Shown: one piece after another, positions 42,512 to 56,900 of the stretch
How the letters are laid out: the number at the start of each line of letters is the position of its first letter
Numbering within the stretch: position 1 is the stretch's first letter
From: Xanthomonas theicola
GTDB lineage: Bacteria; Pseudomonadota; Gammaproteobacteria; Xanthomonadales; Xanthomonadaceae
Reading direction: 5' to 3'
DNA: 64,000 bases
NCBI RefSeq assembly: GCF_014236795.1
Contig: NZ_CP049017.1
Coordinates: 4,008,001-4,072,000, forward strand
The notes under the pieces: generated by a model
The model's database searches: none
The model's input: the letters and a program-made list of their open reading frames with translations, nothing else
Told to the model about the DNA's origin: nothing
Program-made: the position numbers and the translations under genes

Positions 42512-43603
42512 TTAGTCCACGACGCTCAGGTACCGGTACTTGGTCAGGCGGCCCACGCGCGGATCCTCGTCCCTGTAGTAAACCTGCGCGCCGACAGGCA
42601 AGTCCTGCTCGCCGTAGCGCTCGACGGTGGCCGCGACCACCGCGCGCAGTCCCGGCTGGCGCTGGAAGGCGTCGACCGCGGCCAGTTCCGCCGGCGTTGC
42701 GCCGCCGACGCGCCAGGACTGCTCGAGCACGCCGCCGATGCCGGTGCCGTCCTCGGCGACGCCCTCGATCACATCGTAGTTGCGGCGCGATGCATAGAAC
42801 GCCGGATAGGCTTCGGCGATGCAGCGGTCGTAGTGGCGCGCCTTCAGCACCGCCTCGCGCTGCGGCGGCGGCAGCTCGCCCTCCAGCAAGGCATCCAGCG
42901 TGCCGCGGATCACGAACAGTTGCGAGCCACCGTAGGTCTGGCGGCCGCTGCCGTCGCCGGTGACCGATTGCGTTCCGTAGTACGCGATGGTCATCCCGGC
43001 GCAGTCCACTTCGCCGACACTGAAGGTGGTCGAGCGATCCAGCTGCCGTTCGAGCACGACGCCCTGCTGCGCCAGATCCGCCGGGGCCACCGCGTCCAGC
43101 GCCGTGTCGAGCGCGGGCGCGTCGCCCAGCAGCAACTGGCCCTGTCCGCCGATGCCGTGGGGCAGTTTCAACCGCACCTGGCCGCCGCGGCACAGCCGCG
43201 CGTAGGCCGCGCGCGCATCGGCAGCGGCGAACGCGGTGTAGCCGGGCAGCGTGGCCTCGGCCAGTGCGGCGCCCAGCGCATGCTGCCAGCCCTCCGGCGC
43301 GGCCGCGCCGCGTTCGACCAGCGGATGGCTGATCGCCTTGGTGGCGACGAACGCATGCGGCACCACCCCGCCGAGTAGATCGGCGGCGGCGCACACGCCC
43401 AGTGGTTGCGCCTGTGCCGCGGTCAGGGTGTCGTCCGGCACGTAGAAGCCGCTCCCGGCGGCGGCGCCATCGCGTACCGGCACGCCCATCAGCCGCGCCA
43501 CTTCGGCGGCGATCCAGGCATGCGTGGCGGCCTCGTGCCCGTCGGCCGGATGCATGCGGACGCTGTGGCAGCGGACATGGTCGTGTCTGGCAGGTCGGGC
43601 CAT
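42512..43603 (-). CDS. DUF3182 family protein (ATP-grasp-like)
   Basis: A 363-residue protein from ATG 43603 ([20 protein letters not shown]). Conserved DUF3182 segments are [70 protein letters not shown] and [20 protein letters not shown]. The [11 protein letters not shown] stretch resembles the flexible loop of ATP-grasp ligases, so ATP-dependent ligation is an inference. It is paired with the hydrolase downstream. Confidence 0.83.
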
Positions 43604-43972
43604 GCGCGGCACTCCACTCGGGAAGGACTGGACATCAAGCATGCCGGAACAGCAGAACCAGGATCGGCAGCACCGCCAACGCCAGCGCCCCCGGCGCGCG
43701 CAACGGCCTGCGCCGGGGGCGCCACCAAGCGCCCGCTTCCGAGGTGCCGGGCGCATCGCCGGGCGGGTGCGCGCCGACGCGGCCTGCTGCACGGTGATCG
43801 ATCGCGAAGACGGATGGCGGTGGGGGTCGGCCATGCGACCAAGGCTGTCGGCAACCGCGTTGCGCCGTGGTGAACGCGGCATGCCCGGCGCGTCAGCGGC
43901 GCAGCGCAGCGCCGCAGCCGGGACCGGTGCTGGCCATGTCGCGAACGCGCCGACGCAGCGGCACCGCTGCGA
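43604..43972. other. Upstream region of DUF3182, no clear gene
   Basis: The minus strand contains a short open tail, ALALAVLPILVLLFRHA with a stop just before the DUF3182 start, that looks like a membrane helix, but it has no start codon in frame and is not called. Inverted GC-rich stretches are present (CCCCCGGCGCGCGC/GCGCCGGGGGCG, around 43688-43722). Otherwise I see nothing. Confidence 0.45.
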
Positions 43973-44647: not shown

Positions 44648-45147
44648 ATGCACCTGCAACATTGGCTGCGGCCGCCGCACGCATGGGGGTGCGCAACCAT
44701 CCGTTCCTGCCGGTCCTGCTGCATCGCGGGGCCGAGCGGGATGGCGGCGCCGCCGGCTTCGAGCGCCGCTTCGCCAGGCATGGCTGGCCGGCGCAATGGC
44801 GCGACGGCATCGACGCCTACCACCACTACCATTCCAGCGCGCACGAGGTGCTTGGTGCGGCCCGCAGCAACGCGCGGCTGGTGGTCGGCGGCCCGGGCGG
44901 GCCCGAGACCATGCTGGCGGCCGGCGACGCGTTGCTGCTGCCGGCCGGCACTGGCCATTGCTGCATCGCGTCCAGCGCGGACGTCCTGGTGGTCGGCGCC
45001 TATCCGGCCGGGCAGGACTGGGACATCTGCAGGCAGGCGCCCAGCGCCGCCGCGCTCCGGCGCATCGCGCAGTTGCCGTTCCCGCCCCGCGACCCGGTCG
45101 CCGGCGCGCACGGCCCGCTGCTGCAGCATTGGCGGATGCCCGGTTGA
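44648..45147 (+). pseudogene. YjlB-like cupin protein with G-tract frameshift
   Basis: ATG 44648 gives MHLQHWLRPPHAW and then meets a five-G run (44685-44689). The following frame does not continue the protein, but the next frame does: VRNHPFLPVLLHRGAERDGG, WRDGIDAYHHYHSSAHEVLG, GPETMLAAGDALLLPAGTGH and VVGAYPAGQDWDICRQAP. A six-G run would give one intact 166-residue cupin. The His motif (HHYHSSAHE) and GTGH are typical of the YjlB family. A start at TTG 44662 would bypass the lesion but is weak. Confidence 0.8.
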
Positions 45148-45341: not shown

Positions 45342-46511
45342 TCAGGCCCAGACCTTGCTGCATGGGTCCAACTCCATCGTCGCCATTTCGGCGGCGCGCC
45401 AGCCGAACCCGCAGATCGCCAGCACGCCCTGGCTGGCCGGCTCCAGCCCGAACGCCCGCTCCAGGCTTGCTTCGTTGATCGCTGCCGTGACGTACGCGCC
45501 CAGTCCTGCTTCGGTTGCGCAGAGATACAGGGTCTGCGAAAGATGGCCGGCCTCCAGGACGATGGCGCGATAGCCCTTGGCATGGCGGCGGTACTTCCAG
45601 AAGCTGCGGTCGTAGCGAGGAACAAGCAGCACCATGACATGCGCGTCGGCGAACCATTGCTGCTGCGCGACCGCGTCCAGCGCGAACGCAGGCAGAGGCC
45701 CGGGCGATCGCCCCAGGGGCTCGAGTGCATGCTCGATGCAGTGGTAGTGATACAGGCCCGGCGAGACGCCTTCGACGTTCTGGACGATCAGATACGCCTC
45801 GACCGGATGCAGGCCTCCGCCGGAGGGGCTGGTCTTTTTCAGGAAGACCATGTCCTCCGTGACCCGCACCTGTCCCTGCGCGGCGAACACGCGCTGCATC
45901 AGCTGGGCGAACAACCGGTAAGGCAGCGGCAGCTCCGCGTCGAAGTTGCGGCACGTTGCGCGCCGGGCCAGCAGCGTATCGAACTGCGCCTGCTCCGCGC
46001 GAGGCAAGGGCAAGCGCGACGACGCGCTTGCGCACGCGCCGGCTTCCACCGGCGGCGCTCCCAGCACCAGGCGCAGTTCCTGCGCCGTTTCCGTACCGGT
46101 CTCCTTCATGGCTTGCACCGCGTCCGTGCCGCTCCACCGGGTGAAGGCATGGAAGGCGGCCGCCAACGGGTGCCAATGCACCGAGCGCAAGGCGTCGTCG
46201 CGAGCGCGGTTCTCGGCATGGCGGCGACCGCCGGCCACCACCAGCCCCTTCCGCAACAGCCGCTTCAGCGGCTTGCGCGCGGCGTCGGCGAGCGCCTTCG
46301 TCCGCACCCACTTGTCGGGGCTCAGCCGCCCCAACAGCTCCCGCTCCTCGGCATCCACGCCGACCTCGGCGCGAAGGTGCGGCGCCAACGCGATCCAGTG
46401 CAGCGTACGGCGCAAGCCGTCGCCGCCTGCCAAAAGATCATGCAGATCGAACCGGGTGTCCTCGCGGGGCTCCAGGTACAGCACCTTGCAGCGCCGGATA
46501 TGCATCACCAT
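45342..46511 (-). CDS. SagB-like putative peptide-maturation dehydrogenase
   Basis: A 389-residue protein (MVMHIRRCKVLYLEPREDTR; ATG 46505 is a second start). The C-terminal two-thirds is a nitroreductase-fold, SagB-type FMN dehydrogenase: RRATCRNFDAELPLPYRLFA, KTSPSGGGLHPVEAYLIVQN, LYHYHCIEHALEPLG, AIVLEAGHLSQTLYLCATEA and LGAYVTAAINEASLERAFGL. The N-terminal part fits the family I know as 'putative peptide maturation dehydrogenase' (TIGR04511). Relatives oxidise azolines to azoles in RiPPs; here no cyclodehydratase is adjacent. It faces away from the precursor gene with 101 bp between the starts. Confidence 0.85.
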   Translation of the reverse strand: MVMHIRRCKVLYLEPREDTRFDLHDLLAGGDGLRRTLHWIALAPHLRAEVGVDAEERELLGRLSPDKWVRTKALADAARKPLKRLLRKGLVVAGGRRHAENRARDDALRSVHWHPLAAAFHAFTRWSGTDAVQAMKETGTETAQELRLVLGAPPVEAGACASASSRLPLPRAEQAQFDTLLARRATCRNFDAELPLPYRLFAQLMQRVFAAQGQVRVTEDMVFLKKTSPSGGGLHPVEAYLIVQNVEGVSPGLYHYHCIEHALEPLGRSPGPLPAFALDAVAQQQWFADAHVMVLLVPRYDRSFWKYRRHAKGYRAIVLEAGHLSQTLYLCATEAGLGAYVTAAINEASLERAFGLEPASQGVLAICGFGWRAAEMATMELDPCSKVWA

Positions 46512-46612
46512 TTCCTGGGCGGGGGAGAAACCGATTGTTTGACGCGATGCAGCCAGCTAGATTGGGGACCGAGGGCCTGGTTCGGGCCGGTTGACGGGGG
46601 GACGACATAGCG

Positions 46613-46936
46613 ATGAGAAAGACAGGCGGTGGAGCCGCGGCGCAGCTGGAGCTGAAGGTCGCGAGCAGACTGTTGGACCTGCTGGCAACGGACAACGACT
46701 TTCGCAGGCTGTTCAAGAAGGATCCGCGCGCCGCGCTCGTCAACGTCGGCCATGCGGCGGATGCCGAAGGGCTCGCCCAGCTGTCGAAATGCCTCTGCGT
46801 GCAGCGAATCGCTCCCAAGCAGGACATCGCCAGGTCGAGGGAGGCCCTGCTCGAAATGATGACATCGGGCATGTCGCAGAACCCGATTCATTTGAACGTC
46901 GAAAGCAACGCGTCGCGCCGCACCCGCAGGCGCTGA
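46613..46936 (+). CDS. NHLP-type leader peptide, putative RiPP precursor
   Basis: A 107-residue peptide. Residues 13-47 (LELKVASRLLDLLATDNDFR, RLFKKDPRAALVNVGH) match the nitrile-hydratase-like leader of NHLP/'putative modified peptide' families (TIGR04509 type). Next comes a C60-L-C62 pair (AQLSKCLCVQRIAPKQDIAR) and a polar tail (SGMSQNPIHLNVESNASRR). The leader does not end in a clear double-Gly; the site of cleavage is unknown. The gene is on the opposite strand from the dehydrogenase and cyclase, and its 3' end overlaps the cyclase 3' end by 49 bp. Confidence 0.82.
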   Translation: MRKTGGGAAAQLELKVASRLLDLLATDNDFRRLFKKDPRAALVNVGHAADAEGLAQLSKCLCVQRIAPKQDIARSREALLEMMTSGMSQNPIHLNVESNASRRTRRR

Positions 46937-49494
46937 GGAAGCGCGGACGGCGTCCACTGGGCGTCGAACGCACGCAACTGCGCCTGTGCGAGCCGTTGCT
47001 GCCCCGAGGAGGCGAGCAGTTCCGCTGCCAGCAGGTGCCCGAGCGTGGTGTCGACCACGTTGAGCGCTTGTTGGCACCAGCCGCAGCCGAGCTCGCTGTA
47101 GGCCAACCCCCGATGGCGGGTGAGCCAAAGCGATTCCTTCAGCGCCTTGGCGCTGTCGCCTTGCCGGGCGTAGGCCTGCGCCAGTACCTCGTGGAGCCGG
47201 AACGGCTCATTGCCATCGCGATGCGCTTCCAGGATCCGGATGGCCTGGCCGTGGTCTCCCGCCGACAGCGCCTGGCCCGCCTGCAGGATCGCGTACACGG
47301 GCGCAACGAGAACGTTGCCCGTCAGGTCCGCCCTGCCCCGCAGCGCGTGCACGACGCCTTGCGCAAGGCGCCGATCGCCCAGGCGCTGGGCCAGGATCCC
47401 TGCGGAAATCGCCGCATAGACATCGTCCACGGCGTCCGCCGTCACCTCCGCGGCCAAGGCGGCATCGGTCGCACGCGACGATAGATCGCCCAGAACCCGC
47501 AGTGCGGCGCGCTCATCGCCGGCCATCCATTTCGCTACCGCAAGCGGATACAGCGCGGCACGCCCGCGCAACGAGTCCGGCGCCACTGCGCCGGCAATGC
47601 GTTCGGCCGCCGATTGCGCCTCCTGCCACCGCCCCTGGTCGAGCAGCAGCGTGACCTTGTCGAACGGTACGCTGTTGCGCTCTCCCATGCCGTCCAGCAG
47701 CGACGTCGCTTCCTGGAAATCGCGCTGCGCGGCGCTGGTGTTCGCCAGCCGGATGCGCGCGGACGTGCCCTGCCGCGCGCCGGCCTTCAACAACGCCGCC
47801 CTGGCCTCGGCATAGCGATCCAGCGCCAGATACATGCGTCCCATCAGTTCCCAGGACAGGCCGGCGAATTCGTACCGCGGCGACAGCGAAGCCGCTGCCG
47901 ACTCCAGCCCCTGCGCGAAACGGTTGCGCGCGTACAGGGCGTAGCCGACGTTGGCCGAGGCCTGGAAGAAACCCGGATACATCGCAGCCATCTGCTGCCA
48001 CTTCTCCAGCGCCTGCTGGGGGGCGTCCATTTCCGCCGCCCAGGCGTCCAGATACATCCGGTCGCGCGGGGCGAGGTTGGAACGCAACTGCAAGGCCTTG
48101 CGCAGGTATTGTTCCCCGCCCTTGAGATCGTTCACCGCATTGCGCGCGCGCAGCTGGCCGATGTAGGCGAGCGCAAAACTCGGATCGAGCTCCACCGCAT
48201 GCGCATAGAACGCTTGCGCCTTGCCGTACTCGCTGCGATCGTAGGCGTTCTGCCCCAAGGCATACGAACGCAGCGCATCCAAGTCCTTGGTGGTGACGTG
48301 CGGCAACGGGGCGGAATTCCGCTCGATGGAGGCAAACGCCTCACCGAGCTTGCCGCGCAGACCGGCGGTCACCTTGTCGATGGAGCCGAGCACCGAGTGG
48401 ATGCCATAGCCGTCCGCGGATTCGGCGTAGACCGTGGTCTGCGTCTGCGGATCGATGACCTCCGCGCTGACGCGGACACGGCCGCCGACTTCCGAAACAG
48501 TGGGCAGGATCACCGCGCGTGCGCCATCGCGGATCGCGATCTCCGACGCCACCGCCCTGTCCAGCAGGGCCTGGGGATTGCGCCGCATGCGCAGCAGCGC
48601 ATCGCGGGTCTTGATATCCGACAGCAGATTCACGTAGCGCGACTGTTCCAGGCTGATCCGGAACGCCTGCTGCAGCGAGTCGTCCAGGACCGTTTCGCCG
48701 GTCAGGTTGCGCAAGTCCCCCACCACCACCCAGTCGCGCTCGGCGAACGCGATCGCCGGCTGCGGGCGGGTCACGAACCAGCCGCCGACCACCATCGCGA
48801 CGATCAGCGCCGCCTCTGCCGCCAGCGCGACCGGCCTGCGCCACAGCGGCGAGTCGCGCCATGCCTTCGGCGTGGACTTGGGCGCGCGCAACGGGGTGTG
48901 GCCGATCTCGCCGACTTCGTAGATCTCCTGCGCGGTCGGTACGCCCTTGAAGCGCCAGCGCCCGTGCGATTCCCACAGCAGGCGCTCGCCACGCTCGCCC
49001 AGTTCGCGCGCGGCGCGGTGGGTCAGCGACTCGGCCACCGCCGACAGCAGGAGCTGCCCGGGCCGCGCCAACGTCATCAGCCGCGCCGCGGTCGGTTTGG
49101 CCAGGCCCTCCACCTCCAGCGGTTTGGCGCCGACCTGCACCGCCGCGTCGCTGTTGCGCCAGGTCAGCACCTCGCCGACGTGCAGGCCGGCGCGCACCTT
49201 CAGTTCCAGCATGCGCTGCGTGCCCAGCGCGCGCAGGCCGCGGCTGTAGTCCAGGGCGAAGCCCAGGCCGTCGATCGGGCGCTCGAACAACAGCAGCAGA
49301 CCGTCGGACCGGTCGATCAGGCGCCCGCGCCAGCGCTGCTGCAGTTCCAGCACCAGCGCGTCGTGCAGCTTGAACAGTTCGGCGGCGCTGGCATCGCCGA
49401 GCCGTTCCACCAGCGCCATCGAATCGCACAGGTCGGTCAGCAGCAGCGTGCGCAACTGCGGGACCTCCGGCTGGAACTGGTGAGCGTCGTTCAT
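46888..49494 (-). CDS. Putative peptide modification system cyclase (nucleotide cyclase-TPR)
   Basis: An 868-residue protein from ATG 49494. Residues ~10-190 are a class III adenylate/guanylate cyclase-homology domain (QLRTLLLTDLCDSMALVERL; DRSDGLLLLFERPIDGLGFA; VRAGLHVGEVLTWRNSD). A membrane helix follows near residue 240 (ALAAEAALIVAMVVGGWFV), then a TolB/FlgO-like segment (WVVVGDLRNLTGETVLDDSL) and many TPR-like repeats. This domain order fits TIGR04510, found with TIGR04509 and TIGR04511. Whether it makes a cyclic nucleotide is unproven: only the first metal Asp (LTDLCDS) is clear. The GGDEF gene lies 26 bp upstream. Confidence 0.83.
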   Translation of the reverse strand: MNDAHQFQPEVPQLRTLLLTDLCDSMALVERLGDASAAELFKLHDALVLELQQRWRGRLIDRSDGLLLLFERPIDGLGFALDYSRGLRALGTQRMLELKVRAGLHVGEVLTWRNSDAAVQVGAKPLEVEGLAKPTAARLMTLARPGQLLLSAVAESLTHRAARELGERGERLLWESHGRWRFKGVPTAQEIYEVGEIGHTPLRAPKSTPKAWRDSPLWRRPVALAAEAALIVAMVVGGWFVTRPQPAIAFAERDWVVVGDLRNLTGETVLDDSLQQAFRISLEQSRYVNLLSDIKTRDALLRMRRNPQALLDRAVASEIAIRDGARAVILPTVSEVGGRVRVSAEVIDPQTQTTVYAESADGYGIHSVLGSIDKVTAGLRGKLGEAFASIERNSAPLPHVTTKDLDALRSYALGQNAYDRSEYGKAQAFYAHAVELDPSFALAYIGQLRARNAVNDLKGGEQYLRKALQLRSNLAPRDRMYLDAWAAEMDAPQQALEKWQQMAAMYPGFFQASANVGYALYARNRFAQGLESAAASLSPRYEFAGLSWELMGRMYLALDRYAEARAALLKAGARQGTSARIRLANTSAAQRDFQEATSLLDGMGERNSVPFDKVTLLLDQGRWQEAQSAAERIAGAVAPDSLRGRAALYPLAVAKWMAGDERAALRVLGDLSSRATDAALAAEVTADAVDDVYAAISAGILAQRLGDRRLAQGVVHALRGRADLTGNVLVAPVYAILQAGQALSAGDHGQAIRILEAHRDGNEPFRLHEVLAQAYARQGDSAKALKESLWLTRHRGLAYSELGCGWCQQALNVVDTTLGHLLAAELLASSGQQRLAQAQLRAFDAQWTPSALPQRLRVRRDALLSTFK

Positions 49495-49520
49495 GGGCGG
49501 CTCGGCCGGCGCGCGGCGGA

Positions 49521-50618
49521 TCAGTAGGGCGCGGCGGCGAGATCGTGCCAGTACAAGCGGTTGCCGCCGAGGCGCTTGGCCTCGTACAACGCGGCGTCGG
49601 CGTTGGCGTACCAGTCGTTCCAGTCCGACTGCGGATCGACCCGGCTGATGCCGATGCTGACCGGGCAGATATGCGGCAACGGATGCGGCACGCCGAGCAG
49701 GTTCTGCACGGTGGCGATCACGAACTCGCCGATGCGGCGCAGGTCTTCGGCGTTGCCGGCGGCGACCAGCAGGCAGAATTCGTCGCCGCCCAGGCGGCAG
49801 GCGATATCGTCCTGGCTGGCGACGGACCGCAGGATGTTGGCGACGTTCTGCAGCACGCGGTCGCCGACCAGGTGGCCGTGCTCGTCGTTGATGCGCTTGA
49901 AGCGGTCGCAGTCGATCAGCAGCAGGCCCGGTCCCGGCGAGCGGCCGGCGCGCCGGCACTCCTGCAGGCGCAGGACCAGGCCGCGGCGATTGTGCAGGCC
50001 GGTCAGTTCGTCGGTGCGCACCAGCTCTTCGGTCTTGCTGAGCTGGTGGGTGGTGGCGTAGAGATTGTCCAGCGCCGCTTCCAGATCGTGGTTGCGGCGG
50101 CGCAGCTGGCGGATCAGGGTCTGCTCGTTCATCACCACGCGCACGATGGTGCGGCGCAGGAAGTAGGCGACCACGCCCGGGTCGCGCTCCACCAGGCGCT
50201 GAAAGTCGTCGTGGTCCAGTTCGACCAGCACGCCGTCGCTGGCGGCGATCGCATCGGCACTGCGCATATGGTTGCCGATCAACAGCCCGAGTTCGCCGAA
50301 GAACTCGCCGTGCCCGAGATGCTTGACCACCAGGTCCTCGCCGAAATCCAGGTCGATCACGCCGCTGCCGATCACGAACATGGCGCTGCCGCCAGTGCCG
50401 CGCCGGAACAGCACCTCGCCGGCGCGCACCGGCCGCGCGCGGCCGAACTCGGAAAACAGGTCCAATTCCACCGCGGTCAGCACCGCCGGCTCACTGGGCT
50501 TCGGGGCCACCGCGCCAACGGTCGAAGTTGTCTCGCGTGCGTTGGACGCGGCGCTGTCGCAGGTCATCCGAGCCCCACTGCTCCTGGCGTTGCTCGCCAT
50601 CTGCGGGGAGCATAGCAT
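49521..50618 (-). CDS. Cyclic-nucleotide-binding domain plus GGDEF diguanylate cyclase
   Basis: 365 residues from ATG 50618; ATG 50567 would give 348 and has a more purine-rich upstream region. An N-terminal cNMP-binding (CRP-like) domain is visible (FSEFGRARPVRAGEVLFRRG; FFGELGLLIGNHMRSADAIA). A C-terminal GGDEF domain has DELTGLHNRRGLVLRLQECR and the active-site RLGGDEFCLLVAAGN. No RxxD inhibitory site precedes GGDEF (SQDDIACRL). It should make cyclic di-GMP under control of a bound nucleotide. Being 26 bp upstream of the cyclase-TPR gene in the same direction, it could sense that protein's product. Confidence 0.88.
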   Translation of the reverse strand: MLCSPQMASNARSSGARMTCDSAASNARETTSTVGAVAPKPSEPAVLTAVELDLFSEFGRARPVRAGEVLFRRGTGGSAMFVIGSGVIDLDFGEDLVVKHLGHGEFFGELGLLIGNHMRSADAIAASDGVLVELDHDDFQRLVERDPGVVAYFLRRTIVRVVMNEQTLIRQLRRRNHDLEAALDNLYATTHQLSKTEELVRTDELTGLHNRRGLVLRLQECRRAGRSPGPGLLLIDCDRFKRINDEHGHLVGDRVLQNVANILRSVASQDDIACRLGGDEFCLLVAAGNAEDLRRIGEFVIATVQNLLGVPHPLPHICPVSIGISRVDPQSDWNDWYANADAALYEAKRLGGNRLYWHDLAAAPY

Positions 50619-50919: not shown

Positions 50920-53900
50920 TCAAAACGCCACGTTCAGGACCACATCCACGCTTTCGTCGTGCCGGTCCTTGGCGACGCTGCCGTCGTAGCGGACCCCCAG
51001 CCGGGTACGTTCGGAGAGGTCGAGGCTGGCCTGCAACTCCAGCCCCAGGCTGTTCTGGTCGAAGGCGGCGCTGGAGACCCGGAACGGTTGGCTGTCGGCG
51101 AAGGCGAGCGACTGGGTGACCCGGCTCGGCTCGAAGGCATGCTGCCAACCGGCGCCGACCGACAGGGAGCCGCGGCTGCCACCGAGGCCGAATCCGCTGG
51201 CGGCACGCAGGCCCAGCGTGCCGTAGGTCTGGCGCTGGCGGACATCCGAACCGGTGAGCGCAGCGCTGCCGCCATGCTCGCGGAGCCGGTCCCTGCCGAC
51301 ATCGACCTGGGCGAGCCCCAGGTATGGTTGCCAGCGGACGCGGCCGCTCTCCAGGTCGAGCGCGGCTTCGGCGAACAGTTGCGCGGTGCGGGCATCGTAG
51401 TTGGCGGTGAGTCGATCGGAGAAGCGCGGGATGGCCAGTGTCCGTTCGCTGTCGATGCGGTGTCCGCTGTAGAGCGCCCCCAGGCTGAAGTCGACGGCAC
51501 CGCGCTGGGTGCCGGCATAGACGCCGAGATGGTAGCTGTGCACCGATGCCGAAGCCTGCATGCCGTCGACGCCGATCGTCGCGGTGTTGTAGCCGGCGGC
51601 GACACCCAGGCGCCAGTCGGCCGCGACGCTGCCATCGACGCCGACGAAGATGCCGCGGCCGTCGCTGATCGACAGGCCGTGGCCGTTGCCGTCAGCGTCG
51701 TAGTCGGCGCGGCCGCCGAACGCGTCGAACCAGGCCTCCGCCTGGCCGTCCTGCGCCAGCGGCCGTTGCATCGCGCCCTGCGGCAGCGAGGCCGCCGCGG
51801 CACCGCTCCAGGCACCGCGCAGCCGCTGGCCGAGAATGCGGCGCCCCTGGCGGGCCTGGTCGGTCAGCAGGCTCGCCACCGCCGGGTGCAACTCGCCGGA
51901 AAGCTGGTCGAAGGCGTTGGCCGGGGCGCCATCGGGCAGATAGAGCACCGCGTCGTAGAGCCTGTTGCCATCTCCCAGCGACTCGACCGACGCCGCCGTC
52001 GCCTTCTGGTTGGGAGTGTCGACCACGTCGGCGAAGTGCAGCACCCCCCCGGAACCGGCCGACTGATTGCGCGTCAGGACCAGGCCGACGCCATTGGCCC
52101 GCTGCTCCAGCGCGGCGTCGAGCAGGGCGAAGCTGTCGGTGACGCCAGCGAACGTCCCGCTGATCCCGGCCTTGGCATCGAGGATCTGGTAGCGGGTCAG
52201 GGCCCGGTAGGTCGAGCCGTCCTCGCTGCGATCCTGCGGACCGACCGCGACCTTGACGTTCTGGCCGATGACAACCATGCCGCCGACGTCGGTGCGATCC
52301 GCCGCGCCCGCGGCATTGACCTCGACATCGTAGGTGGACCTGGCCGCGAAGGTCAGGGTGCCGTCCACGGTCAGGGTGCCGATCGAGTTGCCCGGCGCCA
52401 GGTGGCCGCTCACCGTGGCGCTGCCGACCCGTCCGCTGCCGCCCAGCGTCGCACCGTCGGCCACGGTTACGCCGCCGGCCACGCGGCCATTGACCGCCAG
52501 CCGTCCGGCGACGACGCGGGTCTCCCCGGCATAGCCGGTGGCACCGGCCAGCGTCAGGACGCCGCGACCGGTCTTGGTCAGCCCGCCCGCGCCGGCGATG
52601 TCGCCACTCAGGATCAGGGTGGTGCCGCTGGCGGTTTCGAAGGTGCCGCCCGCCGCAGCGAGCGTCATGGCATTGCCCAGTTGCAACGAGACGCCGGCGG
52701 CCAGGGTGCCGCCTTCGAAGCGCAGCGGGCGTTGGCCGAGTTGGCTGGCGGAGGTGACGACCTGCGGACCCTGGACGGGCGTCAACACCAGCACATCGCC
52801 GTTGCCGTTGCCAGTGCCGCCACTGCCACTGCCTCCACCTCCACCGCCACCTCCACCGCCTCCACCGCCTCCACCGCCTCCACCGCCTCCACCGCCTCCA
52901 CCGCCTCCACCGCCTCCACCGCCACCAGTGCGGTCTAGGATGAGATAGACATTGCCGCCGTCCTGATCCAGGCTGGCGTCGAGGAAGGCGAAGTTTTCCT
53001 GCACCTTCGCGAATCGGCCAACGACGCCCTGGCCGGCGGTGAGGATGGTGTAGCGGGTCGAGGCGCGGTAGGTGGAACCGTCCTCGCCGCTGGACTGCGG
53101 GGTGACGAGGACGTCGACGTTGTTCCCGATCGTCACCTTGCCGCTGGCCTGCAGACGGCCGGACTGGCCCGCGGCATCGACGCCGACGGCATAGAAGGCG
53201 TTGGCGTCCAGGGTCGCGTCCTTGGCCCGCAGGATGCCGAGCGCATCGCCCGGCGCCAGGCGCCCGCCCGCGGCGACCCGGATGTCGCCGACGCTGCCGG
53301 TCCCACCCAGGCCGGCATCCTTGGCCACGTTCACCGTCCCGCCCAGCCGGGTGCCGGTGGCGAGCTGCAGCAGGCCGGCGCTGACCGTGGTGTCGCCCTG
53401 ATAGCCGGTGTCGCCGCCGAACACGAGTTTTCCCGAGCCGCGTTTGTCGAGCGTGCCGGTACCGCCGAGGGCGCCGGCGACGACGGCGCTGCCGGTGGCG
53501 GCCACCTCGATGACGTTGGCGCCGCTGAGGGTGGCGGCGCCGTCGATGGCGAGCGCCTTTTCCGCGCCGAGCGTCGCGTTGTCCAGTCGCAGCGTGGCGC
53601 CCTTGTCCAACCGGAAGGCGCCCGTGGTCCGCAGCGTGCCGCCGTTCACCTCGAGCCGGCCGGCGCTGGCATGGATATCGCCGCCGAGCGCATTGCTGCG
53701 GGTGAAGGTCAGCCCGCCGCCCTCGAGCGAGACGCCGCCGAAGCGGTTGTCGCCACCCAGGGTCAGCACGCCGTCGCCGCGCTTGATCAGCGCGCCGGGG
53801 CCGCCGATGTCGTTGCGCCAGCGATCCGCGGCATTGAAGTGCGCGCCCGGCGTGGTGTCGTCCTGGGCATTGGCCGTCTCCATGGTCACGGTCACGTCCT

Positions 53901-56900
53901 TGTCGAAGGTGCCGTAGCCTTCGGCGGCGCGGAACAGGTTGATGCGGCTCCAGGGGTCGTCGAGCACGCGGCCGGAGGGGTCGGCGGTGGTGCGGATGAT
54001 GTCGCGCAACTGCTGGCGGTCCAGATAGGGGTAGCGGGTGAGGATTAGGTACTCGGCGTTTTCGGGGACCTGCATCGGCAGGTCGGTGCGCCCCAGGGTG
54101 ATGTTGTTTTCCTTGAGGAAGGCGTCGAAGCCATAGTCCTTGGTCTTGTTGTAGTAGGCGAGCTGCTGCTGGTACTCCTCCCAGGTATCGAACGAGACGT
54201 CGTGGGCGCCGCCGCCGCGGGCGGACGCGCATTCGGCGATCGTGCCGAAGCCGCTCGCCTTGCAACGGTCGCGCTGGCCCTGGCGGATGCCCTTCGGGTT
54301 GGCGGTGGCATTGAGCCAACTGCCGGGGACCGGCACCTGCTGCGCGAGCTGTTCCGCCACCGCCTGGTAGGCCATCGCCCGCGAGGCCATGACGTCCAGC
54401 GGATAGTGCACGCCCAGGACCACGCGGCTTTCCCCGTACTCCTGGGCGCGGTTGACGTAGGCCTGGAAGCGTTCCGGATAGATGTAGGCGGCGAGCAGGT
54501 TGGCGCCGCTGCCCTTGGCGGTGTGGCCGCTGGGAAAGGAGGAGCTGCCGGAGTTGATGCCGTTGATCGGGGCAACCCCGCCCGCCGCCAAGGGAATATT
54601 GGTGGGCCGCGGTGAATGCGAAAGATCCTTGCCGACTTCATGCAGCTTTCCAGGCGATTCGCTCCCCATGTTCATGAAGGGGTTGCCGTGCTCGCCGCCG
54701 ATCGCGTTGAAGGGCCAGCTGTCCAGACGACCGCGGGCGCGATCGGTCATGCCTCCCATGTTGTAGTTGCTGTTGTCGCCGATCGCCAGATCCCTGCGCG
54801 CCTGACTCGTCCGACGATAATCCCGGACCACCTGCATGTTGTGGTCGTCGCGCCGCGGCGTGGTGCCGGCGACGCCGCCGCCGTTGTAGCCGGGATACAG
54901 CGGGCCGGCGATCTGCGGATGCTCCTTGCGCAGGGCGTCGTACTGCTCCACCAGCGAGCGGGTGTAGGCGACTGGCGCGAGCTTCTGCGGCGTGCGATCG
55001 AACGAGAGCCAAACCGAGTTCGCGTCGTAGCTGAGCAGCGCGGTCAAGTAGGCGAAGTTTTCGTGGACGCCGCCAAGCCGGCCGCTGAGTCCACCCTTGG
55101 CCGCGAGGATCTGATAGCGGTCGGCGGGCCGGAACGCGGCGCTGCCGGCGTCCACGCCCTGGGCGCGCAGGAAAACCTCGCCGCCGGCGAGCGCGATGCT
55201 GCCCGCCTGCAGGCGGTCGGCGCGGGTGGCGTCGAGATCGACGTCGAGCCGGGCGCCGGCGGCCATGGTCAGCTTGCCGTCGACCGTCAGCGTGCCGATC
55301 GCGCTGCCGGCCGGATCGAGGATGCCGCCGGAGGCGATGGTGGCCGCACCGACCCTGCCGCGCCCGCTGAGCCGGGCTTGATCGGCGACGCTCACCGCGC
55401 TGGCGAGCGCACCTTCCACGCTGAGCGTGCCGGCATCGACGCGGGTCGGCCCGCTGTAGTCGCTGTCGCCGGCGAGGACCAGGGTGCCCGCCCCGGTCTT
55501 GCGCAGGCCGCCTTCGCCGCGCAGCGGGGCCGCGATGGTGGCCAGGGTGGCCTTGCCGTCGACGAGGATGCCGGTATCCGGCTGCTTCAGGCGTAGCGCA
55601 TCGCCCTGCAGGCGATAGCCGTCGCTGAGGAAGCGCAGGCCGCTCGGGGCGATCTCGCCATCCTTCCCATCGACCGTCACCGTGCCCGGCGAGCCGGCGA
55701 AGACCGCCTGCTTGCCGCCCCAGGCGTCATTGACCCAGCCGCCCTCGCGTGTCCAGTTCTCCAGCGTCCCGCCGGCGCGCCAGACGCCGTCGCCGCCGAC
55801 GGCGCCGTCGGCCATATGCTGGCCATCGCCGTCCCAGAACTGGACCTCGGGAATGGGAGAGTTCACCGCGAACACGACGAACTGGGTCTTGCCCTGGCTG
55901 TTGCTGTTGTTGTTGTCGGACACCAGCACCATCGAGGCATGGCCGTTGGGCAGCCGGGGACCGAAGGTCATGCCCTCGATATTGTCGATCTTGTTCTCGT
56001 AGGTGTTGAGCACGCCATTGAGCGATGCCGAATCGAACACCAGCGTCTTGGGCAGCGTGGCGACGCCTCCGGCGAGGTTGCCGCTGTCCTTGACGTCCTG
56101 GCCGGCGCCCAGGTCGACCCGGTAGATGCGGATGGAATTGTGCGACACCCCCTGGGCTGCGCGGTGGCGGAGGTGCCATCCCAGGCGCGCTCCATCACCA
56201 GCAGGGTCTTGTCGTCGACGGCCAGGATCTCGCTGACGCCGTTTTCCTGGTCCAGCCTGCCATTCCTGCCGCTGAGGTCGTCGAGCCGGTAGACGTACTG
56301 TTTGAGGACATTGCCCTGCCGATCGACCTGGCTCAACCGGGTCAGCCGCACCGGATCGCCGGGCTTGTTGCGCTCGGTGCCGATCCACAGATCGCCGGAG
56401 GGGGTGAAGGTCATGCCTTCCAGGCCCTTGTTTCCAGAAGCGTTGCCCTGCGCGTTCTGAGGGAGCACGAACTGGGTCCGGCTGTTGTCCTCGCGCCAGT
56501 GGAACAGGCTCCCCGTCCCCTCGTTGGCGAACCACAGGCCGTTGCCGGCCGGATCGAAGCGCACCGATTCGGGGGTATCGATCCGCGGATTGCCGTCGAG
56601 CAGGCTGTCGTCGGTGAAGGTGAGCCGGTAGCCCTGCTCGCCCGGCCGGCTCGACGCGGTCAGGTAGAAGACATTGGGAGAACCCGAGCCGTTCGGCAGC
56701 GCACCCGGCATCACATTGTCGCGCACCACCACGAACCGGTTGCTCTTGGGATCGAAGTCGATGCCGGAAAGTCCGGCGACGAGCCACTTGCTGGCGTTGC
56801 GGTAGCCGGTGGGATACGTGGTATTGCTGAGATATTTCAGCCCGGTCATCTCGCGGCGGTCGTCCTGCATCGGATCTGCTTGCTGCGCATGCAGGTGCGG

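What the first reader, a model, noticed from the sequence alone, without database searches (positions are those of the whole stretch)
45342..50618. Four-gene putative peptide-modification system with nucleotide signalling
Seen: a SagB-like dehydrogenase, a divergent NHLP-type leader peptide with a Cys-Leu-Cys segment, a cyclase-homology/TPR membrane protein, and a cNMP-binding GGDEF protein 26 bp upstream of it. Known: TIGR04509, TIGR04510 and TIGR04511 describe the first three as a recurring but, to my knowledge, biochemically undefined RiPP system. Inference: a second messenger made or sensed by the cyclase protein may control the GGDEF enzyme and tie peptide maturation to cell state. No transporter, cyclodehydratase or protease is adjacent, so the chemistry is open.
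Basis: partly seen in the sequence, partly recalled or inferred. Interest (0 to 1): 0.8.

Follow-up and report, generated by a model that had tools for sequence, protein, structure and literature searches.

The report
Swappable peptide-signal receptor cassette, Xanthomonas family
Four neighbouring genes appear to make a modified small peptide and a membrane receptor that turns it into two internal messengers (cGMP, then cyclic di-GMP); close relatives share the internal half but carry very different peptide/enzyme/receptor sets, as in the "dialects" of bacterial peptide communication.

Summary
All four genes are real. Dehydrogenase, peptide and cyclase protein exceed the TIGR04511/04509/04510 cut-offs; the cNMP-GGDEF gene lies 26 bp upstream of the cyclase. 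Dehydrogenase, cyclase and GGDEF occur together in 111 of 198 family genomes; 69 have none. Not found in print in my searches: the link to the peptide, and a striking polymorphism. In two genera the GGDEF protein and cytosolic cyclase domain average 90-96% identity, while the periplasmic TPR half, peptide and dehydrogenase form six discrete, linked alleles per genus (TPR 82-83% within, 29-31% between). In the closest pair, flanks 97-99% identical enclose 3.5-kb cassettes without a blastn match; in 3 of 3 pairs the left edge is at the transmembrane helix. This is the architecture of ComQXPA-type pherotypes. Best reading: a dehydrogenase-matured peptide signal sensed by a receptor guanylate cyclase. 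The relay is well supported; that the peptide is the ligand is inference.

The parts
45342..46511 (-). SagB-like dehydrogenase (TIGR04511), variable module; Trp305-Lys306-Tyr307 present
   Evidence: WKY in 105 of 105 loci
46613..46936 (+). precursor peptide, 107 aa (TIGR04509), convergent with the cyclase gene, divergent from the dehydrogenase
46874..46933 (+). C-terminal 20 residues of the peptide, proposed mature core (allele-specific tail)
   Evidence: lowest nonsynonymous/synonymous ratio of three segments in 6 of 7 alleles with >=3 members; that it is the core is inference
46888..49494 (-). receptor-type guanylate cyclase (TIGR04510), 868 aa
48895..49494 (-). cytosolic class III cyclase domain, residues 1-200, conserved module
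   Evidence: 86-97% mean identity in 50-residue blocks within the genus; residues of XC_0250 6 of 6
48772..48846 (-). single transmembrane helix, about residues 217-241; allele junction at about codon 225
46891..48291 (-). TPR superhelix, residues 402-868, predicted periplasmic, hypervariable module
49521..50618 (-). cGMP-binding diguanylate cyclase (cNMP + GGDEF), conserved output module
45342..48820 (.). approximate extent in the window of the exchangeable cassette (TM + periplasmic half of the cyclase, peptide, dehydrogenase); edges placed by analogy with relatives
46888..46936 (.). 49-bp antisense overlap of the ends of peptide and cyclase genes
   Evidence: overlap in 30 of 44 loci

Best explanation
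A polymorphic modified-peptide signalling system with a receptor guanylate cyclase. Proposed steps: (1) the peptide is made with a helical NHLP-like leader and a C-terminal core of about 20 residues [core: supported by within-allele constraint]; (2) the SagB-like enzyme makes a two-electron oxidation on the peptide (tail, or the common middle Cys), not YcaO-dependent azole formation [enzyme type shown by homology; target and product inferred]; (3) the product is cut and leaves the cell by an unlinked route [inferred, no candidate shown]; (4) it binds the periplasmic TPR superhelix of the cyclase of the same allele [inferred]; (5) this changes cGMP synthesis by the cytosolic domain, cGMP binds the cNMP domain of the GGDEF protein and raises c-di-GMP [cGMP synthesis and its effect on c-di-GMP shown experimentally in X. 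campestris for the apparent orthologues, PMC3770947; residues conserved here], which there affects biofilm and transcription. Alleles are exchanged by recombination between the conserved cyclase domain and the far flank, creating signalling groups like pherotypes.
For: Families. Relay residues: F92, E109, H117, E165 105 of 105 loci, N164 89 of 105, GGDEF 105 of 105, cyclase D34, D64, A143 105 of 105; window matches 7 of 7 cGMP-contact residues. Topology: a hydrophobic segment at residues 201-260 with positive-inside charge in 105 of 105. Two blocks: distance r GGDEF-cyclase domain 0.88; TPR-dehydrogenase 0.69, TPR-peptide 0.69, dehydrogenase-peptide 0.70; within genera TPR-peptide 0.80 against cyclase domain-peptide 0.27; partial r 0.59-0.64, reached by 0 of 300 permutations, free or within genus. 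Genus label changes on trees (minimum 17): GGDEF 17, cyclase domain 17, dehydrogenase 28, TPR 40. Genus monophyly of alleles found in the cyclase-domain tree (support 99; and 94, which the tool calls neither shown nor rejected) and rejected for TPR (p 1.6e-4, 4.8e-5) and dehydrogenase (p 2.7e-57, 2.8e-28). Discrete alleles, with TPR, dehydrogenase and peptide clusters agreeing in 44 of 44 loci. Cassette swap with edge at the membrane in 3 of 3 pairs looked at. Tail conserved within alleles, also in two alleles without gene overlap (0 of 6 and 0 of 4 loci overlap). One receiver-only locus, G054. The TPR model resembles peptide-binding TPR proteins, among them the quorum sensors NprR and Rap (a shared fold shows no function).
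Against: No direct evidence that the peptide is modified, exported or bound by the cyclase. No linked transporter or protease; C39 peptidase domains exist but far away. Linkage of TPR, peptide and dehydrogenase could partly follow from the poor DNA similarity between alleles, which hinders recombination inside the cassette. One genome per species was searched, so strain-level polymorphism is untested. Overlap of peptide and cyclase genes (30 of 44; 13 of 13 in g17 allele 4) may bias the tail statistics there. One of 7 alleles (g1 allele 2) does not show the lowest ratio in the tail. The sequences of XC_0250 and XC_0249 themselves were not read, only residue numbers in the paper.
Confidence: 0.55

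Rival explanations
1. The peptide is an antimicrobial RiPP that also induces its own response: the variable receptor half recognises the self-made antibiotic (as in nisin-type autoinduction, recalled) and the cassette diversifies by warfare, not by communication.
For: SagB-like enzymes and NHLP-type leaders are known from antibiotics; Os1348 of Pseudomonas sp. Os17, a distant NHLP protein in a cluster with a SagB-type enzyme, is needed for full antibiotic activity (PMC7726476, abstract and one section read). Cassette polymorphism is also usual for bacteriocin loci (recalled).
Against: No immunity gene, transporter or protease was recognised in the cassette; its regular partner is a second-messenger relay; the output reported in X. 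campestris is biofilm and regulation.
Confidence: 0.2
2. The TPR half senses something foreign (plant, phage or envelope stress) and is variable for that reason; peptide and dehydrogenase are an effector arm switched on by the relay.
For: The TPR half is the most variable part of the cyclase protein; mutation of either relay gene in X. campestris reduces virulence to plants and biofilm (PMC3770947).
Against: Peptide, dehydrogenase and TPR co-vary as discrete alleles; the tree conflict is seen over 18 genera, and named species with the locus include Lysobacter and Stenotrophomonas as well as Xanthomonas.
Confidence: 0.12
3. The peptide never leaves the cell: the modified 107-aa protein is an intracellular cofactor-like or redox protein and the cluster is a metabolic or redox unit.
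For: No linked exporter; no signal peptide is obvious by eye (no predictor was run); the leader part is conserved and a middle Cys is kept in 120 of 152 peptides.
Against: The co-varying receptor half is predicted to lie on the other side of the membrane.
Confidence: 0.08

Closest known systems
XC_0250 / XC_0249 cGMP to c-di-GMP pathway of Xanthomonas campestris (PMC3770947)
   Same: same linked gene pair and domain make-up; 6 of 6 cyclase and 7 of 7 cGMP-pocket residues named in the paper are present; TPR domain there 'of uncharacterised function'
   Different: the paper's main text has 0 occurrences of 'peptide' and 'dehydrogenase', and the parts read name no input signal
NCBIfam TIGR04509/04510/04511 putative peptide modification system
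   Same: full membership by score
   Different: family names only; I found no paper that tests their function; GGDEF partner and allele structure are not part of the family names
ComQXPA pherotype system of Bacillus (PMC4008528, passages read)
   Same: four adjacent genes: maturation enzyme, peptide most variable at its C-terminal signal, receptor with variable sensor half, conserved output (conservation ComA>ComP>ComQ>ComX)
   Different: prenyltransferase and histidine kinase there; SagB-like dehydrogenase, guanylate cyclase and diguanylate cyclase here; there all four genes are on one strand
RNPP / Rap TPR quorum sensors
   Same: TPR superhelix as peptide receptor (fold match only)
   Different: cytosolic and without cyclase (recalled); here joined across the membrane to a cyclase
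TOMM / SagBCD azole peptides
   Same: SagB-like dehydrogenase
   Different: no YcaO cyclodehydratase found in the genome

Membership tests
TIGR04509/04510/04511 system | each protein above the curated cut-off | tested here: met
   82.1/34, 1137.9/400, 568.8/240 bits
XC_0250/XC_0249 relay | catalytic residues of the guanylate cyclase named in PMC3770947 | tested here: met
   6 of 6 in the window; over 105 loci D34, D64, A143 in 105, A154 in 101, L150 in 84, L66 in 82
XC_0250/XC_0249 relay | cGMP pocket and GGDEF motif | tested here: met
   7 of 7 pocket residues; GGDEF 105 of 105
XC_0250/XC_0249 relay | cGMP made, bound, and c-di-GMP raised | not testable with these tools
   shown in the paper for X. 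campestris only
ComQXPA | ComQ-type prenyltransferase and ComP-type histidine kinase | tested here: not met
   dehydrogenase and class III cyclase instead: not a member, works like it at most
Polymorphic peptide signalling (pherotype) systems | discrete linked alleles of peptide, maturase and sensor half with conserved output half | tested here: met
Polymorphic peptide signalling (pherotype) systems | allele-specific response to extracellular peptide | not testable with these tools
   needs bench work
TOMM (YcaO + SagB azole) clusters | YcaO cyclodehydratase | tested here: not met
   no match in the own genome; 5 of 14 control genomes ring
Os1348 NHLP family (NF038399) | score above cut-off | tested here: not met
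   26.8 bits against 40
RNPP/Rap receptors | homologous TPR receptor | tested here: inconclusive

The most novel reading that the evidence does not exclude
A Gram-negative pherotype system: a dehydrogenase-matured RiPP is the extracellular ligand of a membrane guanylate cyclase, so that self-recognition by peptide dialect sets cGMP and c-di-GMP levels across the Xanthomonas family; dialects move between species and genera by swapping the receptor's outer half together with peptide and enzyme.
Probability: 0.5. Interest if true: 0.92.

Novelty: new variant of a known kind. Interest (0 to 1): 0.8.

Why it matters
It would give the missing input of a known bacterial cGMP pathway, give a function to an uncharacterised RiPP family found in 119 of 198 sampled genomes of its family, and add a Gram-negative, nucleotide-cyclase counterpart to the Gram-positive peptide pherotypes. 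The question 'what does the TPR domain of XC_0250 sense?' becomes directly testable: the candidate ligand is encoded next to the receptor, and natural allele swaps provide ready controls.

Tried and rejected
Degenerate cyclase: my first reading of the motif suggested a dead enzyme because the usual Asn/Arg are replaced; dropped because the paper reports XC_0250 with those residues replaced as active (PMC3770947). Azole chemistry: no YcaO found. Mobile origin on plasmids or phages: 22 plasmid records and 1 phage record match the dehydrogenase, those listed at about 30-34% identity and annotated, where annotated, as SagB-type enzymes. Promoter/terminator scan of 46300-47100: nothing. AlphaFold model of the cyclase protein: TPR part confident, cyclase domain poor (11-row alignment), so not used for the catalytic domain. 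FastTree and quick trees were used; allele labels on the backbone tree need 9 changes (minimum 5) in g1 and 11 (minimum 5) in g17, and shuffled labels do as well in 11 of 200 and 48 of 200 cases, i.e. alleles follow the backbone weakly or not at all.

Print searches that gave no paper joining the peptide family to the cGMP pathway, judged from listings, abstracts and the passages read: (open-licence PMC papers only).
Full report
1. The observation. The window lies in a 4.79-Mb genome. The four genes are as described: dehydrogenase 45342-46511 (-), peptide 46613-46936 (+), cyclase/TPR protein 46888-49494 (-), cNMP-GGDEF 49521-50618 (-), with 26 bp between the last two. NCBIfam scores are 568.8, 82.1 and 1137.9 bits against cut-offs of 240, 34 and 400. 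Peptide and cyclase genes are convergent and overlap by 49 bp.

2. Distribution. In 198 genomes drawn from the family, the dehydrogenase is above cut-off in 119, the cyclase in 121, and the GGDEF protein matches at E<=1e-60 in 121. All three are present in 111, none in 69, a part in 18. In 321 genomes drawn from the class, 4 exceed the TIGR04511 cut-off and all 4 are of the window's family. I fetched up to 20 kb around 119 dehydrogenase hits: 117 of the 119 over-cut-off genomes are covered, the window's own included (G120 and G176, incomplete matches, were not taken), plus a second locus of G036 and two sub-cut-off hits (L129, L131). With the window this makes 120 loci. A profile built here finds at least one family peptide in 119 of 120; the exception, L131, is a sub-cut-off dehydrogenase hit. 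GGDEF lies directly upstream of the cyclase on the same strand in 99 of 107 loci where both frames were found; of 116 loci with cyclase and dehydrogenase frames, the dehydrogenase has the cyclase's orientation in 104 and the opposite one in 12. In 11 of those 12 the peptides are short (76-89 aa; the twelfth frame is 183 aa by its first start codon), 10 of the 11 with hydrophobic ends such as GWVVFCR or MIFFCLK.

3. The signalling half is known. PMC3770947 (parts 1 and 2 of 4 read, plus a term search of the main text) shows that X. campestris XC_0250, a class III cyclase with TPRs, makes cGMP, that its residues 1-220 alone are active, and that the linked XC_0249 binds cGMP and then makes more c-di-GMP. 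With one constant offset per protein, all six XC_0250 residues named there (D41, D71, L73, A150, L157, A161) and all seven XC_0249 residues (F73, E90, L91, H98, V142, N145, E146) are the same letters in the window. Over the 105 loci with full-length dehydrogenase, cyclase and GGDEF (15 of 120 dropped), D34, D64, A143, F92, E109, L110, H117, E165 and the GGDEF motif are invariant; N164 is kept in 89, V161 in 90, L66 in 82, L150 in 84, A154 in 101. PDB chain 5h5o is the closest solved sequence to the cNMP domain (2.4e-47) and has the same seven residues. That XC_0250/XC_0249 are orthologues is therefore strongly suggested, though I did not read their sequences. The paper's main text has no occurrence of 'peptide' or 'dehydrogenase'.

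4. Two halves that evolve apart. Among 8 genomes of the window's genus (27 of 28 pairs; G058-G085 left out as near-duplicates), mean identity is 90-97% in blocks of the GGDEF protein after residue 40 (49% before it), 86-97% in the first 200 residues of the cyclase, 84% over 201-250, and then 78, 62, 51, 49 and finally 22-35% from residue 451 on; the dehydrogenase is at 33-64%. The genomic site is the same: frames on the dehydrogenase side are found in 7 of 7 relatives (44662-45147 at 68-82%, DUF3182 protein at 62-82%). The window's TPR part is at 23-31% to its own genus but 56% to G158 of another genus, and the dehydrogenase 30-55% against 69%, while GGDEF and cyclase domain are 90-95% to its own genus and 57-83% to the 25 outsiders with the best TPR match. 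Trees of 105 loci, counted on 93 rows in 18 genera with at least two rows, need 17 changes of genus (the minimum) for GGDEF and for the cyclase domain, 28 for the dehydrogenase and 40 for the TPR part (FastTree). With one row per allele or genus (40 rows), each genus' six alleles are one side of a branch in the cyclase-domain tree (support 99; and 94, which the tool calls neither shown nor rejected), while this is rejected for the dehydrogenase (p 2.7e-57, 2.8e-28) and the TPR part (p 1.6e-4, 4.8e-5).

5. Alleles and swaps. I then searched all held genomes of two genera (20 and 35): 18 of 20 and 28 of 35 are above the dehydrogenase cut-off. Loci examined: 20 for g1 (18 genomes plus G170 and the named X. 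albilineans record L155) and 29 of 35 for g17 (not taken: G092, G215, G222, G223, G231 without a match and G234 with a fragment). Full-length genes: 18 of 20 and 26 of 29 (left out: G170 and L155, which keep only the GGDEF gene; G175 and G230 with a broken dehydrogenase frame; G214, whose two dehydrogenase pieces lie about 13 kb apart and whose GGDEF runs off the stretch). TPR parts fall into six clusters in each genus: mean identity 0.83 and 0.82 within, 0.29 and 0.31 between, with maxima between clusters of 0.37 and 0.52. Same- and different-allele identities of dehydrogenase and of peptide do not overlap, so the clusters agree in 44 of 44 loci (narrowest gap: dehydrogenase g1 0.65 against 0.60). 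GGDEF and cyclase domain hardly differ by allele (same/different means 0.93/0.92 and 0.95/0.95 in g1; 0.92/0.90 and 0.96/0.94 in g17). In G064 against G118, 5.9 kb on one side are 97.2% and 7.6 kb on the other 98.7% identical, with no blastn match (E<=1e-5) in the 3.5 kb between; within the cyclase gene identity falls from 96-100% to 53% at codon 225, the start of the membrane helix. Two further pairs (G199/G206, G017/G219; flanks 92.6-95.2%) drop at the same block (3 of 3 examined). G199 carries, beside its opposite-type dehydrogenase, a match to the last 61 residues of a dehydrogenase of the other type, read as a scar of replacement. For 9 of 12 alleles the closest TPR part, and for 9 of 12 the closest dehydrogenase, lies in another genus, against 1 of 12 for the cyclase domain (the outside set is larger, for which the cyclase domain is the control).

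7. The peptide. Of 157 peptides found, 152 (E<1e-12) were aligned: they share an N-terminal part (LldlL..DD.FR..F..dp.aAL...G) and a helix after an [A/P]-x-K motif; the tails fall into classes (TPQLD..., VVFCFEAGKV..., GWVVFCR...). A middle Cys is kept in 120 of 152, the CLC of the window in 2. Within alleles, the last 20 codons have the fewest amino-acid changes relative to silent ones of three segments in 6 of 7 alleles with at least three members (for example 22 against 158 and 5 against 53 codon differences in g17 alleles 1 and 2; pairs are not independent; exception g1 allele 2). Those two alleles have no overlap with the cyclase gene (0 of 6, 0 of 4). This is what a receptor-recognised core should look like: nearly fixed within an allele, different between alleles.

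8. Chemistry. The SagB-like enzyme keeps Trp-Lys-Tyr in 105 of 105 loci (that Lys-Tyr is catalytic in SagB-type enzymes is recalled). Without YcaO, azole formation by the usual route is unlikely; a two-electron oxidation in the tail or at the middle Cys is my inference, with low confidence in the site.

9. Losses. X. albilineans CFBP2523, X. sp. GPE 39 (G170), G052, G060, G107 and G069 keep the GGDEF gene without cyclase, dehydrogenase or peptide in the 17-19 kb looked at; G054 has cyclase and GGDEF without dehydrogenase or peptide, as a listener that no longer speaks would.

10. Verdict. The relay is known; the RiPP families are known by name; the union of both into a polymorphic, ComQXPA-like cassette was not found in print in the searches named. 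The claim that the peptide is the ligand rests on co-variation, linkage, topology and within-allele constraint, and needs the bench tests listed.

Noticed in passing
window 50920-56787 (-): 1955-aa autotransporter frame with PATR repeats, phytase-like, PAP2 and autotransporter beta-domains.
   Followed up: no
window 42512-43882 (-): DUF3182 protein; flanks the site in 7 of 7 same-genus relatives examined.
   Followed up: no
L155 and L162: X. albilineans and X. sp. GPE 39 keep the cNMP-GGDEF gene but show no cyclase, peptide or dehydrogenase beside it.
   Followed up: partly
L262 (G054): Cyclase and GGDEF full-length, no dehydrogenase or peptide found in 18 kb: a possible receiver-only genotype.
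   Followed up: partly
window 46888-46936 and relatives: The end of the receptor gene is antisense to the end of the peptide gene (the proposed core) in 30 of 44 loci, which ties their sequences together.
   Followed up: no
L071, L102, L104, L133: Several peptide paralogues in one locus, in L102 and L104 with several dehydrogenases.
   Followed up: no
L240, L129, L241: Dehydrogenase frame broken in G230 and G175; in G214 its two pieces lie about 13 kb apart.
   Followed up: no
G000:C1 732999, 561505, 4270568: C39 peptidase domains far from the locus, two with identical scores: possible unlinked export/processing candidates.
   Followed up: no
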